Shown here: in pieces, positions 15,356 to 24,848 of the stretch
How the letters are laid out: each line of letters starts with the position of its first letter
Numbering within the stretch: the stretch's first letter is position 1
IMG/VR virus record: IMGVR_UViG_3300046714_000323
Span: 1-36,057 of that record
Reading direction: 5' to 3' (one strand)
DNA length: 36,057 nucleotides
DNA from: a virus
Program-made: the position numbers and the translations under genes
Notes under the pieces: generated by a model
Told to the model about the DNA's origin: nothing
Databases searched by the model: none
The model's input: only the letters and a program-made list of their open reading frames with translations

Positions 15356-15566
15356 TTTGAGTCTCCATTTTCTCGTTATACTTTTTAATATCTTCCCTGT
15401 TGTGAGGGTTTGTTTTCATTAATATGTGCATTCTAAGCTCTTCCAAGATGTCATAAGAGCCTTTAAATTTATTCCAGCTCTCATCGTTGGTGACATTGCT
15501 TTGCATTGATTGCCATAACTCAACGCTCTTTTTGGATATCCAAGACATAACATCATCAATCGTCAT
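15348..15566 (-). CDS. Hypothetical early protein
   Basis: A 72-residue helical protein (MTIDDVMSWISKKSVELWQS, later SYDILEELRMHILMKTN). It overlaps the next gene by eight bases and the previous one by eleven. There is no membrane segment and no recognised family. Confidence 0.58.
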   Translation of the reverse strand: MTIDDVMSWISKKSVELWQSMQSNVTNDESWNKFKGSYDILEELRMHILMKTNPHNREDIKKYNEKMETQND

Positions 15567-15753
15567 ATTTCACCATCGCTTGGCAGATTTCTTGGCCTAA
15601 TCCTTTGCCTTCATCATTAACAAAAGGGCTGCCATATAGCTCATAACCTTCCTCAGACCATTCCATAACGAATTGACAAAGTTGTTTATCATCATTTGAG
15701 CAAACCATAATATAACCAACCAATATCCTTTTTGGCTTCATAAATCTTCGCAA
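15556..15753 (-). CDS. DUF1737-like small protein, copy 1
   Basis: A 65-residue protein. After a basic start it has the pattern strand (RILVGYIMVCS), helix (DKQLCQFVMEWSEEGYELYG), strand (SPFVNDEG), ending ICQAMVKY. The order aromatic-E/W-G-x-x-L-x-G ... (A/C)QAMVKY matches the DUF1737 type and the two genes at 19991 and 20229. The biochemical role of the family is unknown. Confidence 0.68.
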   Translation of the reverse strand: MRRFMKPKRILVGYIMVCSNDDKQLCQFVMEWSEEGYELYGSPFVNDEGKGLGQEICQAMVKYDD

Positions 15754-15994: not shown

Positions 15995-16156
15995 TTAAAA
16001 TCTATCCTTAAATATCCAGCATATAGTTAAGATGAAATCTAAGATTATCGTTATGTGAGGATTTGGAACAGTACTTTCAAAATATGAGCGCGCATCCTTC
16101 ATTCCCCACATTAATATCCCTAAACCTGCATAAGTTCCAAATGTAATCATTATCAT
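15995..16156 (-). CDS. 53-residue membrane protein
   Basis: The ORF starts MIMITFGTYAGLGILMWGMK and has a second hydrophobic stretch near the C-terminus (ITIILDFILTICWIF), so two membrane segments with a short charged loop are likely. It overlaps the upstream gene by ATGA. Size and topology would fit a holin-like, anti-holin or exclusion protein, but the early position does not favour a holin. Function unknown. Confidence 0.6.
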   Translation of the reverse strand: MIMITFGTYAGLGILMWGMKDARSYFESTVPNPHITIILDFILTICWIFKDRF

Positions 16157-16419
16157 TCCTCCATGATTGCCGCAATCTTTGCTAATTTAAGTCTCATTTT
16201 ATCGTGCGATTCCACAAATTCAAAAGTGTGCTTGTTAGATGCATTGAAATCGCCCAATCCAAATGAATAACAAAGCCATGCAAGCTTTTGAATATCTTCC
16301 ATAAGTTCTTCCATCTTTGCTTGAGGTAAGCAATATCCACTTTCTAAGAAAGTCTTGGTCATGGATTGAACTTTGCTAATTTCAGCTTCAATATGTTGAG
16401 TATAAGAGCAATATTTCAT
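16153..16419 (-). CDS. Helical early protein, possible paralogue of 16416-16673
   Basis: An 88-residue helical protein with a central segment SMTKTFLESGYCLPQAKMEEL followed by a second helix and a (Y/F)GxG(D/E) turn (CYSFGLGDFNA). The neighbour at 16416 has a similar layout (DPMTKILIDKGLAENQVENI, then YGFNQGEIHGRE), so an old duplication is possible. Function unknown. Confidence 0.62.
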   Translation of the reverse strand: MKYCSYTQHIEAEISKVQSMTKTFLESGYCLPQAKMEELMEDIQKLAWLCYSFGLGDFNASNKHTFEFVESHDKMRLKLAKIAAIMEE

Positions 16420-16673
16420 TGGGATGCCATTTCATTCGGTTGCGGGACGCTTTTCATGAGAGAGGCGACAATGATATCAAGTGCTAATTGTTTGCCAACT
16501 TCTCTACCATGGATTTCACCCTGATTGAAACCGTATTCAATGCATGCCTTTAATATTTCTCGTATATTTTCAACCTGATTTTCAGCCAATCCTTTGTCTA
16601 TCAATATTTTAGTCATTGGATCGATCATTGATATTGATTCAGTTAAAAACAATTCTCTATTGTTAATATTCAT
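16416..16673 (-). CDS. Helical early protein
   Basis: An 85-residue helical protein. Motif PMTKILIDKG near residue 19 and YGFNQGEIHGREVG near 52 parallel those of the gene downstream at 16153. It has no membrane segment. It overlaps the gene on each side by four bases. Function unknown. Confidence 0.62.
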   Translation of the reverse strand: MNINNRELFLTESISMIDPMTKILIDKGLAENQVENIREILKACIEYGFNQGEIHGREVGKQLALDIIVASLMKSVPQPNEMASQ

Positions 16674-16837
16674 TTGTGCTTCTCTAAAGTTTTACTAATA
16701 TTGTGACCAACTTCTTTGTAGAAGCTTCCAGCCTCATATATGATTTTAGGAAGCATAAAGACCGCCGCTGTTATTAAAACAACGGCTAACGGAGTCCCAA
16801 GGGATTGCTCTATATTTTTGAGTGTAATTTGTTCCAT
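16670..16837 (-). CDS. Membrane peptide, paralogue of GG-leader peptide
   Basis: A 55-residue peptide that aligns without gaps, from Met onward, with the peptide encoded just upstream. Shared positions include EQ at 10-11, G14, L17, AVF at 25-27, PKII at 30-33, Y40, E42, GH at 44-45, I47 and TL at 50-51. It has one membrane segment (about 17-34). The leader-like start (MEQITLKNIEQSLGT) has Gly at -2 but Thr at -1 and lacks the Glu at -8, so if the upstream copy is a processed peptide, this copy may be unprocessed (for example an immunity or partner protein). It overlaps the next gene by ATGA. Confidence 0.62.
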   Translation of the reverse strand: MEQITLKNIEQSLGTPLAVVLITAAVFMLPKIIYEAGSFYKEVGHNISKTLEKHK

Positions 16838-16846
16838 GATTTCACC

Positions 16847-17035
16847 TTAATGATTTGGATCGTAGGGATGATTATATTCATATAATGTTTCCCCGATTTG
16901 ATGTCCCCATTCATTGTACTCTTTACGAGTATCATTGATTATTTTGGGAAATACAAACACGGCAACAACGGCGGCTATCAGCTGTAAGAATCCGCCTGAT
17001 ACTTGTTCTACTTCTGAAACATTAAGCTCTATCAT
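16847..17035 (-). CDS. Peptide with double-glycine leader (bacteriocin-like)
   Basis: A 62-residue peptide starting MIELNVSEVEQVSGG. Counting back from the cut after the second Gly, it has Leu at -12, Glu at -8, Val at -7, Val at -4 and GG at -2/-1, all the key positions of leaders cut by C39 peptidase ABC exporters (class II bacteriocins and microcins). The predicted mature part of 47 residues has a hydrophobic start (about 16-34, FLQLIAAVVAVFVF) and a polar C-terminus rich in Tyr, His and Asn. No exporter or peptidase gene is present in this genome. It may instead be a plain small membrane protein whose leader match is chance. Confidence 0.62.
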   Translation of the reverse strand: MIELNVSEVEQVSGGFLQLIAAVVAVFVFPKIINDTRKEYNEWGHQIGETLYEYNHPYDPNH

Positions 17036-17048
17036 TCAATATCCTTAT

Positions 17049-17297
17049 TTATTCAATATCTTCGTTTTTAATATCTTCATCAACTTTTAGTTTGTAAACG
17101 CATTCTCTGGTTTTAACAGATACTTCTTTATCCTCCGTTTTGCTGGTTCTCCTAATCCATTGGCTTTTTTCAAGAATTAACGAAATATTTAAAGGTTTGA
17201 AATAATTTGCCGCCCCAACTTCTCCTTTTGAAATTTCATGGTCACCGTGTTTGTTCATCATTTCTTGGCAATATTTTATATGTTCGCTTAATTTCAT
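17049..17297 (-). CDS. Small early protein, MKLSEHI type
   Basis: An 82-residue soluble protein. The start MKLSEHIKYCQEMMNKHGDHE follows a common phage pattern (M-K/T-x-x-E-x-I/L-x-x-L ... GD), also seen in the gene at 21522. It ends in an acidic tail. It overlaps the recT stop by four bases and is probably translated from the same mRNA. Function unknown. Confidence 0.62.
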   Translation of the reverse strand: MKLSEHIKYCQEMMNKHGDHEISKGEVGAANYFKPLNISLILEKSQWIRRTSKTEDKEVSVKTRECVYKLKVDEDIKNEDIE

Positions 17298-18121
17298 TTT
17301 AATTTGTCCGCTAATGCATCTGCCTGCTCTGTCACAGGTTCAGCGTCAATCACTTCACCTGTGTTGTAGTCAATAACGATGTCCTCACTAGAAGCATAAT
17401 CCTTAAGGATATCGCGAGTATCCTGGGTTCCAAAATCAGCTTGCTCGTCGATAGCTGTAGCTTGCTGCAACTTCTCAATGGATACTGGCAGGTATTTAAA
17501 TAACTTTCTAAGCACAGTCTTCTTCGCCATCTCTTCATAATCTGTTACCCATGGTCCTGAGTTCCCAGATTTCGACCTAGCACGAATCTTGTCAACGTCA
17601 GGCTTGGACATAACCTCAATCTGATGGCCGCCTCCAACGAAATGGGCGACCGAATAGACTGCCATAAGCTTTCCTCTGTCAGCGAGAGAGGGGACATGCC
17701 TCAATTTCTCGGTTAAACCGTACTCAAACTCGAAGGTATCGTTTTCATAAACCTCATGGGCTGCGAGTGATACAATCTGCCCTGAGCGTCTGGCGAGCTC
17801 TATCATGCCTCTATAGCCCATGATTACTTGCACTTCAACCGTATTCTTCTTACGATTGTCGAAAGGTATGAGGTAGATATGCCCTAACGCGCCGCCTGGC
17901 TCCAAGCCAAGCTGAGCACACATCATGATTGCACCACAGAAGGACATTGGATCACATGTCGCGAGCTTTGGTACTTTTCGTAGCTCGGTTAGGGCTATAC
18001 GGGTCATCCTATCTGGTGACAGATGTTTGGGTAGCGCTTTCAATAGTTGCGGTTGCAATTTTTCTAGAAGATTTTGGACGCTCGCTAATTGGTTATTAGA
18101 TTTAGGCGCAGAAACTGTCAT
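17294..18121 (-). CDS. recT: RecT-family single-strand annealing protein
   Basis: A 275-residue protein that anneals complementary single strands during recombination. Family features in order: N-terminal helices (ASVQNLLEKLQPQLLKALP), RMTRIALTELRKVPKL, the signature LGLEPGGALGHIYLIPF near residue 75, the GYRGMIELARRSG helix, and a C-terminal region ending in a disordered acidic tail. The ATG at 18121 is chosen because GGAGAC lies eight bases before it; the longer frame to 18265 would run into the yqaJ gene and adds residues foreign to the family. It lies 22 bases after the exonuclease gene, forming the usual two-gene recombination pair. Confidence 0.92.
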   Translation of the reverse strand: MTVSAPKSNNQLASVQNLLEKLQPQLLKALPKHLSPDRMTRIALTELRKVPKLATCDPMSFCGAIMMCAQLGLEPGGALGHIYLIPFDNRKKNTVEVQVIMGYRGMIELARRSGQIVSLAAHEVYENDTFEFEYGLTEKLRHVPSLADRGKLMAVYSVAHFVGGGHQIEVMSKPDVDKIRARSKSGNSGPWVTDYEEMAKKTVLRKLFKYLPVSIEKLQQATAIDEQADFGTQDTRDILKDYASSEDIVIDYNTGEVIDAEPVTEQADALADKLK

Positions 18122-18143
18122 ATCAATGTCTCCAAAGTAATAG

Positions 18144-19061
18144 TTATTTGTTGTTTTTGATAAGGAATCTTCTGGAAGTACTTCCTTCTTTGAGGTATTG
18201 TTCATACAATTTCTGGTTTTCATCCGCAAATTTCTTTGCATCGAAACGCACAGCTCCTTTTGCATTTTTCCAAGTAGCGATCATTTTACCATTTTGTCCG
18301 TGTAAAATACTTTTGTCTTTCATGAAAGTTTTAATTCTGGTTTCGCAAATCTTTATGCCTTCTTCCAGGCTTTTTAGGTTTTGCTTATTTATTATCAATT
18401 GATCGATATATTCCTGAATTGATTCATCAGCTATTAATGGCTCATCGTCCATAGCGTTTGCGTATAGACTTACCACTTCATCAGGCGTTCTAGGTTCAGG
18501 AGGGATATCATTTTTCACACAATCCCAGAATTCCTTTTCTTTTTTGATTATCATATCCTCAAGCTTGGCGTTTCTCTCATACACATAATGTCGAAAATCA
18601 CTTCCAGCAATCAAGACAGCAATATAAGCTCGCTCTAGATCTAATGTGGCCACATAATGGGCAACCTGGCATAAATAATAATCGGGAATTATATTCTCAC
18701 CATCTGAACCCCATCCAATATCTCGCCCAGCAGTTTTGCATTCCAATATGGCCTTTTCGCCCTTGACGAGCCTATCAACGTTTGCAGCCATGTAAGGTAT
18801 AGACTTGTGATAAAACGTATCCTTGGCAATCTCCAGTGGCTTGCCTGTGTCATCTTCAAACCATTGCGCAACGACAGGCTCAAGATAATTACCCGCTCTA
18901 ATAACAGGCTTGTCGCTTATATCCTCGATTTCTTTTAAGCCGAGCTTTTCTTGCCATAGCTCAATAATGTTTCCATAAGGATTGACGCCACAAATAGTGC
19001 TTGCATCTGAGCCTCCTATGTAATTTTGTCTTTCTATTAGTTGTTGTTCAGTTAAGCTCAC
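18144..19061 (-). CDS. YqaJ-type viral exonuclease
   Basis: A 305-residue protein of the YqaJ / lambda-exonuclease fold. Visible motifs: GGSDAS near residue 16, ICGVNPYGN at 23-31, Glu61 in NYLEPV, Asp96 in AANVDR, and the catalytic LECKT with Glu107 and Lys109, followed by a helix with CQVAHY. It is expected to degrade one strand of double-stranded ends, giving single strands for RecT. The C-terminal third is helical and charged. Its start overlaps the stop of a small CxxC protein gene by 14 bases, so it belongs to the leftward early operon. Confidence 0.92.
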   Translation of the reverse strand: MSLTEQQLIERQNYIGGSDASTICGVNPYGNIIELWQEKLGLKEIEDISDKPVIRAGNYLEPVVAQWFEDDTGKPLEIAKDTFYHKSIPYMAANVDRLVKGEKAILECKTAGRDIGWGSDGENIIPDYYLCQVAHYVATLDLERAYIAVLIAGSDFRHYVYERNAKLEDMIIKKEKEFWDCVKNDIPPEPRTPDEVVSLYANAMDDEPLIADESIQEYIDQLIINKQNLKSLEEGIKICETRIKTFMKDKSILHGQNGKMIATWKNAKGAVRFDAKKFADENQKLYEQYLKEGSTSRRFLIKNNK

Positions 19062-19786: not shown

Positions 19787-20001
19787 AAACCATTTCTCTT
19801 AAAGCCGAACAAGTCATCAAAGGATTAATTGATGGAAACATACAAAACCATGAATCTACCGACTCAACATCTACATGGTTTGTTTTGAAATATGAAAATC
19901 AGGAATTTGATATTACTTTAAGCAGCAAAACAGACAGACAAGTTGTTATTCATTACTTTTATAGCAAAATAATGGAATTGGAGATGCAAAATGAGTCTTA
20001 A
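19783..20001 (+). CDS. Small early protein
   Basis: A 72-residue protein starting MKTISLKAEQVIKGLIDGN. The ATG at 19783 (ATGA overlap with the regulator gene) is preferred over the in-frame ATG at 19753, which would lie far inside that gene. It has mixed strands and helices, no membrane part and no recognised family. Confidence 0.62.
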   Translation: MKTISLKAEQVIKGLIDGNIQNHESTDSTSTWFVLKYENQEFDITLSSKTDRQVVIHYFYSKIMELEMQNES

Positions 20002-20236
20002 ACAACCAACAATAAATGTTAATTTCGACCATCCAGAAGTCATTAAAAGTATAGGTAAGATAGTGGGGCAAAGGAAAGTCATTGATTATTATATTTGCCG
20101 CGATCCCTCTGCTATGGATGTTCGGGAAGAAGTGATGGATTTGATAGGTGATGGTTGGGAGCTTTTAGGCGGTATCAGTGTTACTTTTGATGAAGAAAAG
20201 TCTTTTTATGCTCAAGCGATGGTGAAATATGGATAG
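19991..20236 (+). CDS. DUF1737-like small protein, copy 2
   Basis: An 81-residue protein. Core: VIDYYICRDPS, then VMDLIGDGWELLGGISVTFDE and FYAQAMVKYG. DGWELLGGIS followed by YAQAMVKY is the clearest of three copies of this motif in the genome. It overlaps both neighbours by about ten bases. Its role is unknown. Confidence 0.7.
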   Translation: MSLKQPTINVNFDHPEVIKSIGKIVGQRKVIDYYICRDPSAMDVREEVMDLIGDGWELLGGISVTFDEEKSFYAQAMVKYG

Positions 20237-20408
20237 AAAAATAGTTCAATATAAAACGATTTGGGTTAAAGATAAATGCATTGATGAGGATGTAAATGAT
20301 GCAATTAAAACAGGGTGGGAACCATTAGGAGGGATAAGCCATATTATCGATAACGAAGAGCCATGCGTTATGTATTGTCAGGCCATGGTGAAATATGAAG
20401 CTCAGTAA
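20229..20408 (+). CDS. DUF1737-like small protein, copy 3
   Basis: A 59-residue protein starting MDRKIVQYKTIWVKD. It carries AIKTGWEPLGGIS and YCQAMVKYE, the same core as the gene before it, so the two are a tandem duplication. The start overlaps the stop of the gene before it by eight bases, and its end overlaps the next gene by 14. Confidence 0.68.
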   Translation: MDRKIVQYKTIWVKDKCIDEDVNDAIKTGWEPLGGISHIIDNEEPCVMYCQAMVKYEAQ

Positions 20409-22290: not shown

Positions 22291-23337
22291 ATGTTATCAA
22301 ACCAGACTTATAACTACAATACCCCCCCAGCTCATATTTCCGGCTTGCTACAAGATATAGCGATACCCCAGCCTAATACCACAACATCTAAGATAGTAAA
22401 CAAAAACAGTATCGACTATTCACTTAAGAATGCCATCGAGAAAGAGCTTAATGCCATCATTAAGGCTAAGGGATACAAGGGTAGCCGAGCTCTTATCATC
22501 AAACAGATTGGTTATCGCCTGGACAAAGACATGACGTCGGGCGTGGGGCAAAAGAAGCTTGCCTTTGTGACCGGCTATTCCGTCAAAACAATAGAACGTT
22601 CCTATGTTCAATATGCAGCTGATGGCTTGCTCCTTTACGAGCGCGAGGGTAAGTGGCAGGAGCGTAGGCCGAACAAAACTACTATGTTATGTTTACAACA
22701 TTTGTTGCCGCTCGTAACAGACAAAATGTCTGATGATATAAATAATCTTACTAATCTGAGAGATCTAAACAATAACATAACATATGAAGAACATGTCAGT
22801 CTTTTTAATAACTTACAGAAAGAGAAGATCCAAACCCAAGTTCCTACCGAGAAACCGAAACCCTTAGGCACACATATATCGCAAAGCGCTCTAGGAGGTC
22901 CTGGGAGAAACGATGAGTTACTCAGGGTCTGTCTGGCCTGGTTGCTAACAGACGCCCAAACCAAGTACGTTATTACTCGTATGGCAGATAAATCAATTGT
23001 GAACCAAGCATACTATCTCTCGGCTTTATGCCGAGGCTTGAAGGAGGGAACCTGGAATATGAGCACACGAGAAGATCTCGGTTATACAAAAACAACTGGC
23101 ACAGGAAAGCCGCATCAGTCTGAGGCACCAAAACCAAAAGTCAGTCCTGAGAAACGACAAGAAATTCATGATTGGGCTGAGAAGAAAGCTTATGACCGCG
23201 CCAAAGAATTAGGCAAGACTCGCTCAGATACTGACTACGAGCAAATGAGGAACTTCGACTCATTCATCACAAGCGAAACTCTCAATTTCGAAAAACAGGC
23301 TTTTCTCAAAATTCACATGAGGGAGATTGGCAAATGA
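22291..23337 (+). CDS. Putative replication initiator (helix-turn-helix)
   Basis: A 348-residue protein. Residues about 44-130 look like a winged helix: a helix (LKNAIEKELNAIIKAKG), then KKLAFVTGYSVKTIERSYVQ (helix-turn-helix, about 88-107), and a wing (LLLYEREGKWQERR). The middle is a low-complexity linker; the C-terminal third is helical and charged (KRQEIHDWAEKKAYDRAKELG). This layout resembles initiator proteins of phages and plasmids (lambda O or RepA-like winged helix at the N-terminus). Position next to a dyad-rich gap and upstream of parA supports the role. A plain transcription regulator remains possible. The ribosome site is weak. Confidence 0.62.
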   Translation: MLSNQTYNYNTPPAHISGLLQDIAIPQPNTTTSKIVNKNSIDYSLKNAIEKELNAIIKAKGYKGSRALIIKQIGYRLDKDMTSGVGQKKLAFVTGYSVKTIERSYVQYAADGLLLYEREGKWQERRPNKTTMLCLQHLLPLVTDKMSDDINNLTNLRDLNNNITYEEHVSLFNNLQKEKIQTQVPTEKPKPLGTHISQSALGGPGRNDELLRVCLAWLLTDAQTKYVITRMADKSIVNQAYYLSALCRGLKEGTWNMSTREDLGYTKTTGTGKPHQSEAPKPKVSPEKRQEIHDWAEKKAYDRAKELGKTRSDTDYEQMRNFDSFITSETLNFEKQAFLKIHMREIGK

Positions 23338-23834: not shown

Positions 23835-23978
23835 ATGAATCCAGAAGACAATCCCATCCTTGAGGATGAGGACGCAGTTTATGCGCTAAGGTATTTGATA
23901 TCTTGCGGGTATGAAGTTGAGCTAGTAGAGCAAGCATTTATTTATATCGACAAACATGGAGAATGGAAGGAAGAATGA
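23835..23978 (+). CDS. 47-residue protein leading the par operon
   Basis: The ORF starts MNPEDNPILEDEDAVYALRY and is acidic and helical. The ATG at 23835 is preferred over an in-frame ATG at 23793 because TTTTAGGAGGG lies directly before it. Its stop overlaps the parA start by ATGA. Function unknown; its position makes it part of the partition transcript. Confidence 0.6.
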   Translation: MNPEDNPILEDEDAVYALRYLISCGYEVELVEQAFIYIDKHGEWKEE

Positions 23979-24634
23979 AAATAATCTCGTTAGTTAACTC
24001 TAAAGGTGGGGTAGGAAAAACGACCCTGTGTATTAACTTGGCCAGACAGATGCAAATGCATATTTGCGCAAAAGAGCAAAAGCCGAAAGATGCAAAAGTG
24101 CTTCTTGTCGATGCCGATCCACAAGGGTCTATAAGGGATTGGCATGATGCAGGTGGTCACGTCTTAATTGACATGGTCTCGCTGGACAGGAAGAGCGCCA
24201 TAATCCAACTTCGGGATATGAACATGGATTATGATTTTGTTTTTATCGATACGCCTGGAAAGGTGGATGAGATTATGTGCTCAGCCATCGCCGTAAGCGA
24301 CTTAGTGCTCATACCTGTCCAACCTTCACCCTATGACATTTGGGCAAGTATGGACACCATTGAGCTTGTCAAAAACCGTCAGGCGATAGCAAATGATAAG
24401 CCGGAATGTCGTTTTGTGCTCAATCGATGTATCCCAAACACCATCATAGCATCAGATGTAAAAGCGCATATGCATAAAAGCGCTTTTAAGCATTTACAGA
24501 CAAGCATCTCCAATAGAGTGATTTTTGCCGAGTCAGCACAGCGAGGATGCACGATATTTGAATCAGGCAATGAGCTGGCTATTAGCTCTATCAAGTCATT
24601 AGGTGATGAGATGAGAGAGGTGTTGTATGTCTAA
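23975..24634 (+). CDS. parA: ParA-family partition ATPase
   Basis: A 219-residue ATPase of the ParA/MinD family. The deviant Walker A motif KGGVGKTT is at residues 10-17, with the signature Lys10; the second motif DADPQGS is at 46-52; Walker B-like FVFIDTPG is at 88-95, and PVQPSPYDIW at about 113-122 fits the family. It lacks an N-terminal DNA-binding domain, as in the short type Ib ParA (ParF) proteins that move plasmids over the nucleoid. The ATG at 23975 follows GGAAGGAAGA and begins the conserved strand; the upstream frame adds only four residues. It overlaps the partner gene by eight bases. Confidence 0.9.
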   Translation: MKIISLVNSKGGVGKTTLCINLARQMQMHICAKEQKPKDAKVLLVDADPQGSIRDWHDAGGHVLIDMVSLDRKSAIIQLRDMNMDYDFVFIDTPGKVDEIMCSAIAVSDLVLIPVQPSPYDIWASMDTIELVKNRQAIANDKPECRFVLNRCIPNTIIASDVKAHMHKSAFKHLQTSISNRVIFAESAQRGCTIFESGNELAISSIKSLGDEMREVLYV

Positions 24635-24848
24635 TCCATTGGATAGAAAACGAGGTCCATCAACTCATAGTGGAATGCTCGCAGCTAAACGAGAAGTTCT
24701 CAAGCCCAAAAAAATCAAAGCCAGCGTCATCTTCAATGTCTCGACTCATCGGATGATTAAGGCTATGGTTTCAACTCAGGGTGGCACTATCTCTGACTTA
24801 ATGGAAGAGCTAGCTTATAACTATCTCAAAGAACATGGAAAGGTTTGA
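24627..24848 (+). CDS. ParG-like ribbon-helix-helix partner of ParA
   Basis: A 73-residue protein. The basic N-terminal half (LDRKRGPSTHSGMLAAKR) looks unstructured; then a strand (KIKASVIFNVS, about 29-39) and two helices (THRMIKAMVS and TISDLMEELAYNYLKEHG) give the ribbon-helix-helix fold. Length, flexible basic N-terminus and position directly after a short ParA match ParG and Omega, the centromere-binding partners. It is expected to bind near 23742-23834, stimulate ATP use by ParA and repress the operon. The identity of the binding site is inference. Confidence 0.78.
   Translation: MSNPLDRKRGPSTHSGMLAAKREVLKPKKIKASVIFNVSTHRMIKAMVSTQGGTISDLMEELAYNYLKEHGKV

What the first reader, a model, noticed from the sequence alone, without database searches (positions are those of the whole stretch)
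16670..17035. Phage-encoded pair of paralogous peptides, one with a textbook double-glycine leader
The peptide at 16847-17035 begins MIELNVSEVEQVSGG: Leu -12, Glu -8, Val -7, Val -4, Gly -2, Gly -1, the positions used by C39-peptidase exporters. Its neighbour at 16670-16837 aligns with it gaplessly from Met to about residue 55 (EQ, G14, AVF, PKII, Y..E.GH.I..TL) but has lost the GG site and Glu -8. One processed and one unprocessed copy, both with a membrane segment, would fit a toxin with immunity protein, a two-part bacteriocin, or a membrane exclusion pair. There is no exporter on the genome, so a host one would be needed. A GG-leader peptide in an early phage operon beside recT is unexpected and I know of no described system like it.
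Basis: partly seen in the sequence, partly recalled or inferred. Interest (0 to 1): 0.75.

Follow-up and report, generated by a model that had tools for sequence, protein, structure and literature searches.

The report
Phage-borne bacteriocin cassette using host exporter
A virus of soil- or water-dwelling gammaproteobacteria appears to carry a tiny exported antibacterial peptide (with a look-alike partner that may protect its carrier) whose export tag nearly matches one used by bacteria that all own the matching export machine, so the phage may arm its host with two small genes and no exporter.

Summary
Peptide A (16847-17035, minus) has a canonical 15-residue double-glycine leader; B (16670-16837, minus) is a true paralogue that lost the GG site. 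A is no chance match. A leader matrix built only from nine bacterial GG leaders ranks A first of 9,646 start-ORFs in 33 related phage genomes, and another phage's GG peptide second, far above the rest.

Two other complete phages of the group, G001 and G010, carry GG/GA peptides in the same early operon, downstream of the recombination genes. Each is followed by a ~60-residue membrane protein. Relatives of both genes form bacteriocin-immunity-like operons in an unnamed gammaproteobacterial order; two of those peptides pass NCBI's class IIb bacteriocin cut-off. All 14 sampled genomes of that order encode C39 exporters. One bacterial precursor there shares 12 of 15 leader residues with A.

Best reading: an exporter-less bacteriocin cassette. 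The precursor is cleaved and secreted by the host's C39 exporter. B is most likely immunity; a second peptide is the alternative. Not shown: cleavage, toxicity, immunity, and this phage's own host. Phage-borne bacteriocins are known (SPbeta sublancin, telocins): a new variant of a known kind.

The parts
16847..17035 (-). Peptide A: 62-aa double-glycine bacteriocin precursor (candidate)
   Evidence: ORF with RBS AAGGA; GG leader; ranks 1st of 9,646 phage start-ORFs against bacterial GG leaders
16991..17035 (-). Leader of A, MIELNVSEVEQVSGG; predicted C39 cleavage after Gly15 (between 16991 and 16990)
   Evidence: 12 of 15 residues identical to the leader of a bacterial GG precursor in L272
16850..16990 (-). 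Predicted mature A, 47 aa: hydrophobic helix then charged helix
   Evidence: sequence; hydrophobicity; AlphaFold2 helices 5-26 and 28-54 in the model, which lacks Met1
16670..16837 (-). Peptide B: 55-aa paralogue of A without a GG site; candidate immunity protein (alternative: second peptide)
   Evidence: BLASTP 1e-10 to A; z=12-17 against shuffles; leader score at background, rank 140 of 9,646
17049..17297 (-). 82-aa ORF between recT and A in the same operon, function unknown
   Evidence: ORF; no significant family match
17294..18265 (-). RecT-type single-strand annealing protein, upstream in the operon
   Evidence: PF03837 1.7e-54, phrog_148 3.6e-90
18144..19061 (-). RecE/YqaJ-type exonuclease
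   Evidence: PF09588 2.9e-24, phrog_434 1e-82
16416..16673 (-). 85-aa ORF overlapping the end of B (ATGA), function unknown
   Evidence: ORF and overlap
23963..24634 (+). ParA-type partition ATPase (suggests plasmid-like maintenance)
   Evidence: PF13614 1.1e-21; ParA also in sister phages
24627..24848 (+). ParG-like partition protein, overlapping parA
   Evidence: PF09274 22.8 bits against a cut-off of 21.4

Best explanation
A and B are a minimal bacteriocin cassette carried by a temperate or phage-plasmid-like P22-type podovirus. A is made with a 15-residue leader; the host's own C39-peptidase ABC exporter (CvaB-like, with its membrane-fusion protein and TolC) recognises the leader, cuts after Gly-Gly and secretes a 47-residue membrane-active peptide that harms related cells lacking the phage. 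B, a duplicate of A that lost the cleavage site, stays in the inner membrane of the carrier and protects it, most likely by pairing with mature A. The gain would be to favour phage-carrying cells and kill phage-free segregants and competitors. Shown by sequence: leader, paralogy, operon position, equivalent cassettes in sister phages, bacterial relatives of those cassettes, exporters in the best-matching host order. Inferred: export and cleavage, toxicity, immunity by B, the ecological role and the host of this phage.
For: A ranks first of 9,646 phage start-ORFs against a matrix of bacterial GG leaders, and an HMM of core peptides from bacteria only finds G001 (2.5e-18), G010 (1.3e-6) and then A (0.0077), next noise 0.24. 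G001 (81% RecT, 91% capsid) has, downstream of recE/recT, MRTLTLNEIHEVDGG|KFKF... joined by ATGA to a 62-aa membrane protein. G010 has a GA-leader relative plus a homologous membrane protein below its own exonuclease gene. The partner family lies directly below GG precursors, often two in tandem, in G461, G458, G459 and G462; two of those peptides pass the TIGR03949 class IIb bacteriocin cut-off. A's leader matches a bacterial GG precursor in the same order at 12 of 15 residues, while the cargo differs, p=0.09, as expected for one exporter and varied cargo. All 14 genomes of that order carry C39 domains; all eight exporters inspected keep Cys, His, Asp and Walker A, beside a ~420-aa partner ORF. 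ParA and ParG fit stable carriage.
Against: No homologue of mature A or of B was found in any collection, so the cargo cannot be tied by homology to a known bacteriocin. A falls below the TIGR03949 cut-off (15.5 against 21.5 bits) and has no Pfam bacteriocin match. B resembles A, not the membrane partner family of the sister phages. Nearly all other phages of the group lack such a cassette. The order that best matches the leader was not shown to host this phage; composition is inconclusive, and the one physical host link in the group is a Legionellales single-cell genome in which no C39 domain was found.
Confidence: 0.6

Rival explanations
1. Two-peptide (class IIb-like) bacteriocin: A and B are both active peptides acting together, B being processed poorly or at a non-standard Gly-Thr site, with immunity from another small membrane ORF downstream.
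For: Bacterial operons of the related cassettes often hold two GG peptides in tandem plus one membrane partner (L265, L268, L269). A and B are similar in size and hydrophobic pattern, and several membrane-like ORFs follow, for example 15995-16156.
Against: B's leader scores at background (rank 140 of 9,646) with Thr at -1; no other immunity candidate is supported, and the 53-aa ORF does not match the partner family.
Confidence: 0.17
2. Envelope peptides for superinfection exclusion: A is moved out through the host C39 exporter and B stays in the inner membrane; together they block DNA entry of related phages instead of killing cells.
For: Small phage-encoded membrane proteins with early expression are typical of exclusion systems (general knowledge); both have one strongly hydrophobic segment.
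Against: It does not explain why the same early operon of two other phages holds relatives of bacterial bacteriocin-immunity-like operons; no PADLOC or PHROG exclusion match.
Confidence: 0.1
3. Secreted GG signal peptide used by the phage to sense the density of carriers, or a self-acting lysis peptide like the Nap peptides.
For: GG leaders are also used for pheromones; Nap peptides of Neisseria are GG peptides that promote autolysis, not competitor killing (PMC11798529); the cargo of A differs from that of its sister phages.
Against: No receptor or sensor gene seen beside A; the sister cassettes are related to class IIb bacteriocin models.
Confidence: 0.08
4. The leader is a chance resemblance; A and B are ordinary small membrane proteins of unknown function.
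For: No homologues of either peptide; below curated bacteriocin cut-offs.
Against: Rank 1 of 9,646 with a wide margin against an independent matrix, with sister phage G001 second at the same operon position; 12 of 15 leader identity to a bacterial GG precursor.
Confidence: 0.05

Closest known systems
Class II microcins of Enterobacterales (microcin V type; PMC9746304)
   Same: 15-residue GG/GA leader, small unmodified peptide, adjacent small membrane protein as immunity candidate, C39 exporter with Cys-His-Asp in the likely host group
   Different: Carried by a phage without exporter genes; the partner B is a paralogue of the peptide; no activity known; sequence unrelated
Class IIb bacteriocins, lactobin A/cerein 7B family (TIGR03949)
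   Same: Two bacterial relatives of the sister-phage peptides pass this model's cut-off; tandem GG peptides plus one partner
   Different: A itself scores 15.5 against 21.5 bits and lacks the GxxxG-rich cargo
Sublancin 168 of prophage SPbeta (PMC8270828)
   Same: Phage-encoded leader peptide bacteriocin with immunity gene; kills cells that have lost the prophage
   Different: Glycosylated, Gram-positive host, and the phage brings its own exporter SunT and modification genes
Telocins of Klebsiella telomere phages (PMC12042878)
   Same: Toxin-immunity locus that differs between otherwise related phage-plasmid-like phages and arms the host
   Different: Large protein bacteriocins, not GG-leader peptides; linear plasmid prophages
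Nap peptides of Neisseria (PMC11798529)
   Same: GG peptides with C39 peptidase; NapC is related to an inovirus protein
   Different: Chromosomal island with its own peptidase and channel; acts in autolysis, not killing of competitors

Membership tests
Class II microcin / GG-leader bacteriocin | N-terminal double-glycine (GG or GA) leader recognised by C39 exporters | tested here: met
   Rank 1 of 9,646 against bacterial leaders; 12 of 15 identity to the L272 leader
Class II microcin / GG-leader bacteriocin | Adjacent small membrane immunity protein (51-216 aa) | tested here: inconclusive
   B fits by size, place and membrane segment but is a paralogue of A; protection untested
Class II microcin / GG-leader bacteriocin | C39 exporter with catalytic Cys, His, Asp plus membrane-fusion protein available to the producer | tested here: inconclusive
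   Present in all 14 genomes of the best-matching order, absent from the phage; not shown that this order hosts the phage
Class II microcin / GG-leader bacteriocin | Secreted peptide inhibits other bacteria | not testable with these tools
   needs expression and activity assays
TIGR03949 class IIb bacteriocin, lactobin A/cerein 7B family | Score above the curated cut-off of 21.5 bits | tested here: not met
   A 15.5 bits; sister phage G001 20.3; bacterial relatives 22.2 and 26.5
PF10439 Bacteriocin_IIc | Score above the curated cut-off of 27.1 bits | tested here: not met
   No match for A or B
Two-peptide bacteriocin | Both peptides carry a cleavable GG leader | tested here: not met
   B ends its leader-like stretch in Gly-Thr and scores at background
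Phage-plasmid | Phage structural genes together with plasmid partition genes | tested here: met
   Portal, terminase, coat plus ParA and ParG
Phage-plasmid | Plasmid replication initiator and circular extrachromosomal state | tested here: inconclusive
   The 348-aa ORF 22291-23337 has no Pfam match; circularity and extrachromosomal state could not be tested on this record
Known anti-phage defence or exclusion system | Match to a PADLOC model | tested here: not met
   No match for A, B or the sister-phage pair

The most novel reading that the evidence does not exclude
A lineage of P22-like phage-plasmids swaps two-gene, exporter-less bacteriocin cassettes in and out of one early-operon position and hijacks a host C39 exporter to kill phage-free kin; in this phage the immunity protein arose by duplication of the bacteriocin precursor itself and loss of its cleavage site, so that the uncut copy guards the membrane against the cut one.
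Probability: 0.3. Interest if true: 0.8.

Novelty: new variant of a known kind. Interest (0 to 1): 0.62.

Why it matters
The phage-borne bacteriocins found in the literature here are large proteins or bring their own export and modification genes. A two-gene, exporter-less GG cassette in a podovirus would be about the smallest such weapon and would tie phage carriage to competition among uncultured gammaproteobacteria. The paralogous pair also makes a concrete question testable: can an immunity protein arise by duplicating the toxin precursor and losing its cleavage site? The work further turned up an apparently undescribed family of GG bacteriocin plus membrane partner operons in a bacterial order whose sampled members all keep the exporter.

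Tried and rejected
Direct homologue searches for A and B in IMG/VR, phage and plasmid records and 369 gammaproteobacterial genomes gave nothing, except one leader match (L272). The sister peptides and their partners find only G001 in IMG/VR pattern scans, and the G001 peptide nothing among phage or plasmid records. I tested whether the 53-aa membrane ORF at 15995-16156 is a relative of the partner family; a weak pairwise signal (p about 0.01) vanished with the ten-member HMM. GG peptides beside the C39 exporters in the order of the single-cell genome were not found. PF10439 in that order gave only sub-threshold hits. Tetranucleotide composition did not separate host orders. A capsid tree does not make window, G001 and G010 an exclusive clade: with midpoint rooting they are early-branching with G004 and L089, and G001 pairs with G038, which lacks a cassette. 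G010's leader alone scores at background (rank 114); its case rests on cargo and partner homology. DNA-level repeats of A and B were not obtained (strand error).

Full report
What was checked. The window is a 36,057-base virus record of a P22-like podovirus: portal, terminase and coat match PHROG families, and the portal is about 26% identical to phages such as Shewanella X14 and Vibrio VvAW1. Peptide A (16847-17035, minus) and B (16670-16837, minus) are real ORFs with ribosome-binding sites, in a tight early operon below recE and recT. They are paralogues: 34% identity over 53 gapless residues, E=1e-10, z=12-17 against shuffles. A has the full double-glycine leader; B keeps only Gly-2 and has Thr at -1.

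Is the leader more than chance? A strict motif scan over 2.33 Mb of related phage DNA (partly redundant) gave only two hits: A, and a peptide of the sister phage G001. As an independent test, a matrix was made from nine GG leaders of bacterial chromosomes only, and used to score every ATG start of ORFs of 35-150 codons in 33 near-complete phages. A came first (30.8), G001 second (25.3), the next 15.3, of 9,646. B scores 9.2, at background.

Sister phages. G001 (RecT 81%; capsid 91%) has MRTLTLNEIHEVDGG|KFKFHFNVFQAVFMVF... about 1.4 kb below recT, with a strong RBS and an ATGA overlap with a 62-residue membrane protein. G010 (capsid 89%) has a GA-leader peptide, MRYLKSIEIKLANGA|GWGSW..., below its exonuclease gene, again followed by a small membrane protein. 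The two membrane partners are homologous (z=8.5-9.8) and the two peptides weakly so (p=0.003-0.012). The two peptides lie in the same operon position as A but their cargo is unrelated to A. Most other phages of the group have no such cassette.

Bacterial relatives. A profile of the two phage partner proteins found, among 369 gammaproteobacterial genomes, one genome with two copies (G196). Searching its order (14 genomes) found the family in five. In G461, G458, G459 and G462 it lies directly below GG precursors, often two in tandem, with a ~145-residue HTH-like ORF upstream in most. L263's precursor is a clear homologue of G001's peptide (score 157, best of 5,000 shuffles 64). Two of these bacterial peptides exceed the NCBIfam cut-off for class IIb bacteriocins (22.2 and 26.5 against 21.5 bits). 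So the phage G001 and G010 cassettes look like captured bacteriocin-immunity pairs. The immunity role of the partner is inferred from position, size and membrane character, which are the criteria used for class II microcins (PMC9746304).

The link to A. In G312, of the same order, a precursor begins MKELNCQEVEQVSGG|FWLLAAR... and shares 12 of 15 leader residues with A (MIELNVSEVEQVSGG), while the cargo is not significantly alike (p=0.09). Conserved leader and variable cargo is what one expects when different peptides use the same exporter. An HMM from bacterial core peptides alone ranks G001 and G010 first and then A (E=0.0077; next 0.24); for A this comes from the leader.

The exporter. The phage has none, but all 14 genomes of that order have C39 domains, 13 with E below 1e-35. 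Eight exporters inspected carry the catalytic Cys, His and Asp and Walker A, next to a ~420-residue ORF, HlyD/CvaA-like in the one translated. In G461 and G458 the cassettes and exporters lie far apart, so an exporter working in trans would be normal there.

Host. Not settled. One capsid relative (79%) lies in a single-cell genome classed as Legionellales UBA4722 (PMC7453286), in which no C39 domain was found; 12 of 36 genomes of its order have one. The leader match points to the order of G196 instead. That order is unnamed here; genome sizes of 3.6 and 3.0 Mb resemble Ca. Berkiella (PMC9803151), which is a guess.

How it most likely works. A is exported and cut by the host's C39 exporter and acts on membranes of related cells; B remains uncut in the inner membrane and protects the carrier. 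ParA and ParG suggest plasmid-like carriage, where a secreted toxin with immunity would kill phage-free segregants, as sublancin does for SPbeta (PMC8270828). Cleavage, toxicity and protection are inferred.

Known or new. Phage-borne bacteriocins are established: sublancin (with its own exporter) and the telocins of telomere phages, where toxin-immunity loci differ between related phages (PMC12042878). A Neisseria GG peptide is related to an inovirus protein (PMC11798529). No paper describing exporter-less GG cassettes in podoviruses was found in nine searches of an open-access library (most subscription journals are not in it). A does not meet the TIGR03949 or PF10439 cut-offs, so it is filed as working like a GG bacteriocin, not as a member of those families.

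Noticed in passing
L263 924-1348; L264; L265 1142-1683; L266; L268; L269 (genomes G461, G459, G458, G462): Apparently undescribed bacterial operons: HTH-like ORF in most, one or two GG peptides, and a ~60-aa membrane partner with a conserved pattern (W...(E/D)....H..W).
   Followed up: partly
L256 723-911; L257 8767-8979 (genome G196): Stand-alone copies of the membrane partner without a GG peptide beside them, in a genome with a complete C39 exporter; may be orphan immunity genes.
   Followed up: partly
L271 1477-2382: The first ~20 residues of the partner family appear fused in frame to a longer nucleotidyltransferase-like ORF.
   Followed up: no
window 15556-15753, 19991-20236, 20229-20408: Repeated small ORFs with a shared G(W/Y)E..G(G/S) ... 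QAMVKY pattern; similar ORFs occur in G004 and G010.
   Followed up: no
L088 (BMAG01000039.1, 36,484 bp): A relative of this phage, about whole-genome length, lies in a single-cell genome of an uncultured Legionellales bacterium, a direct host link for the group.
   Followed up: partly
window 23963-24848 and ParA in G001, G026, G035, G036, G038, G040: Partition genes are common in this group of P22-like phages, which suggests phage-plasmid carriage.
   Followed up: partly
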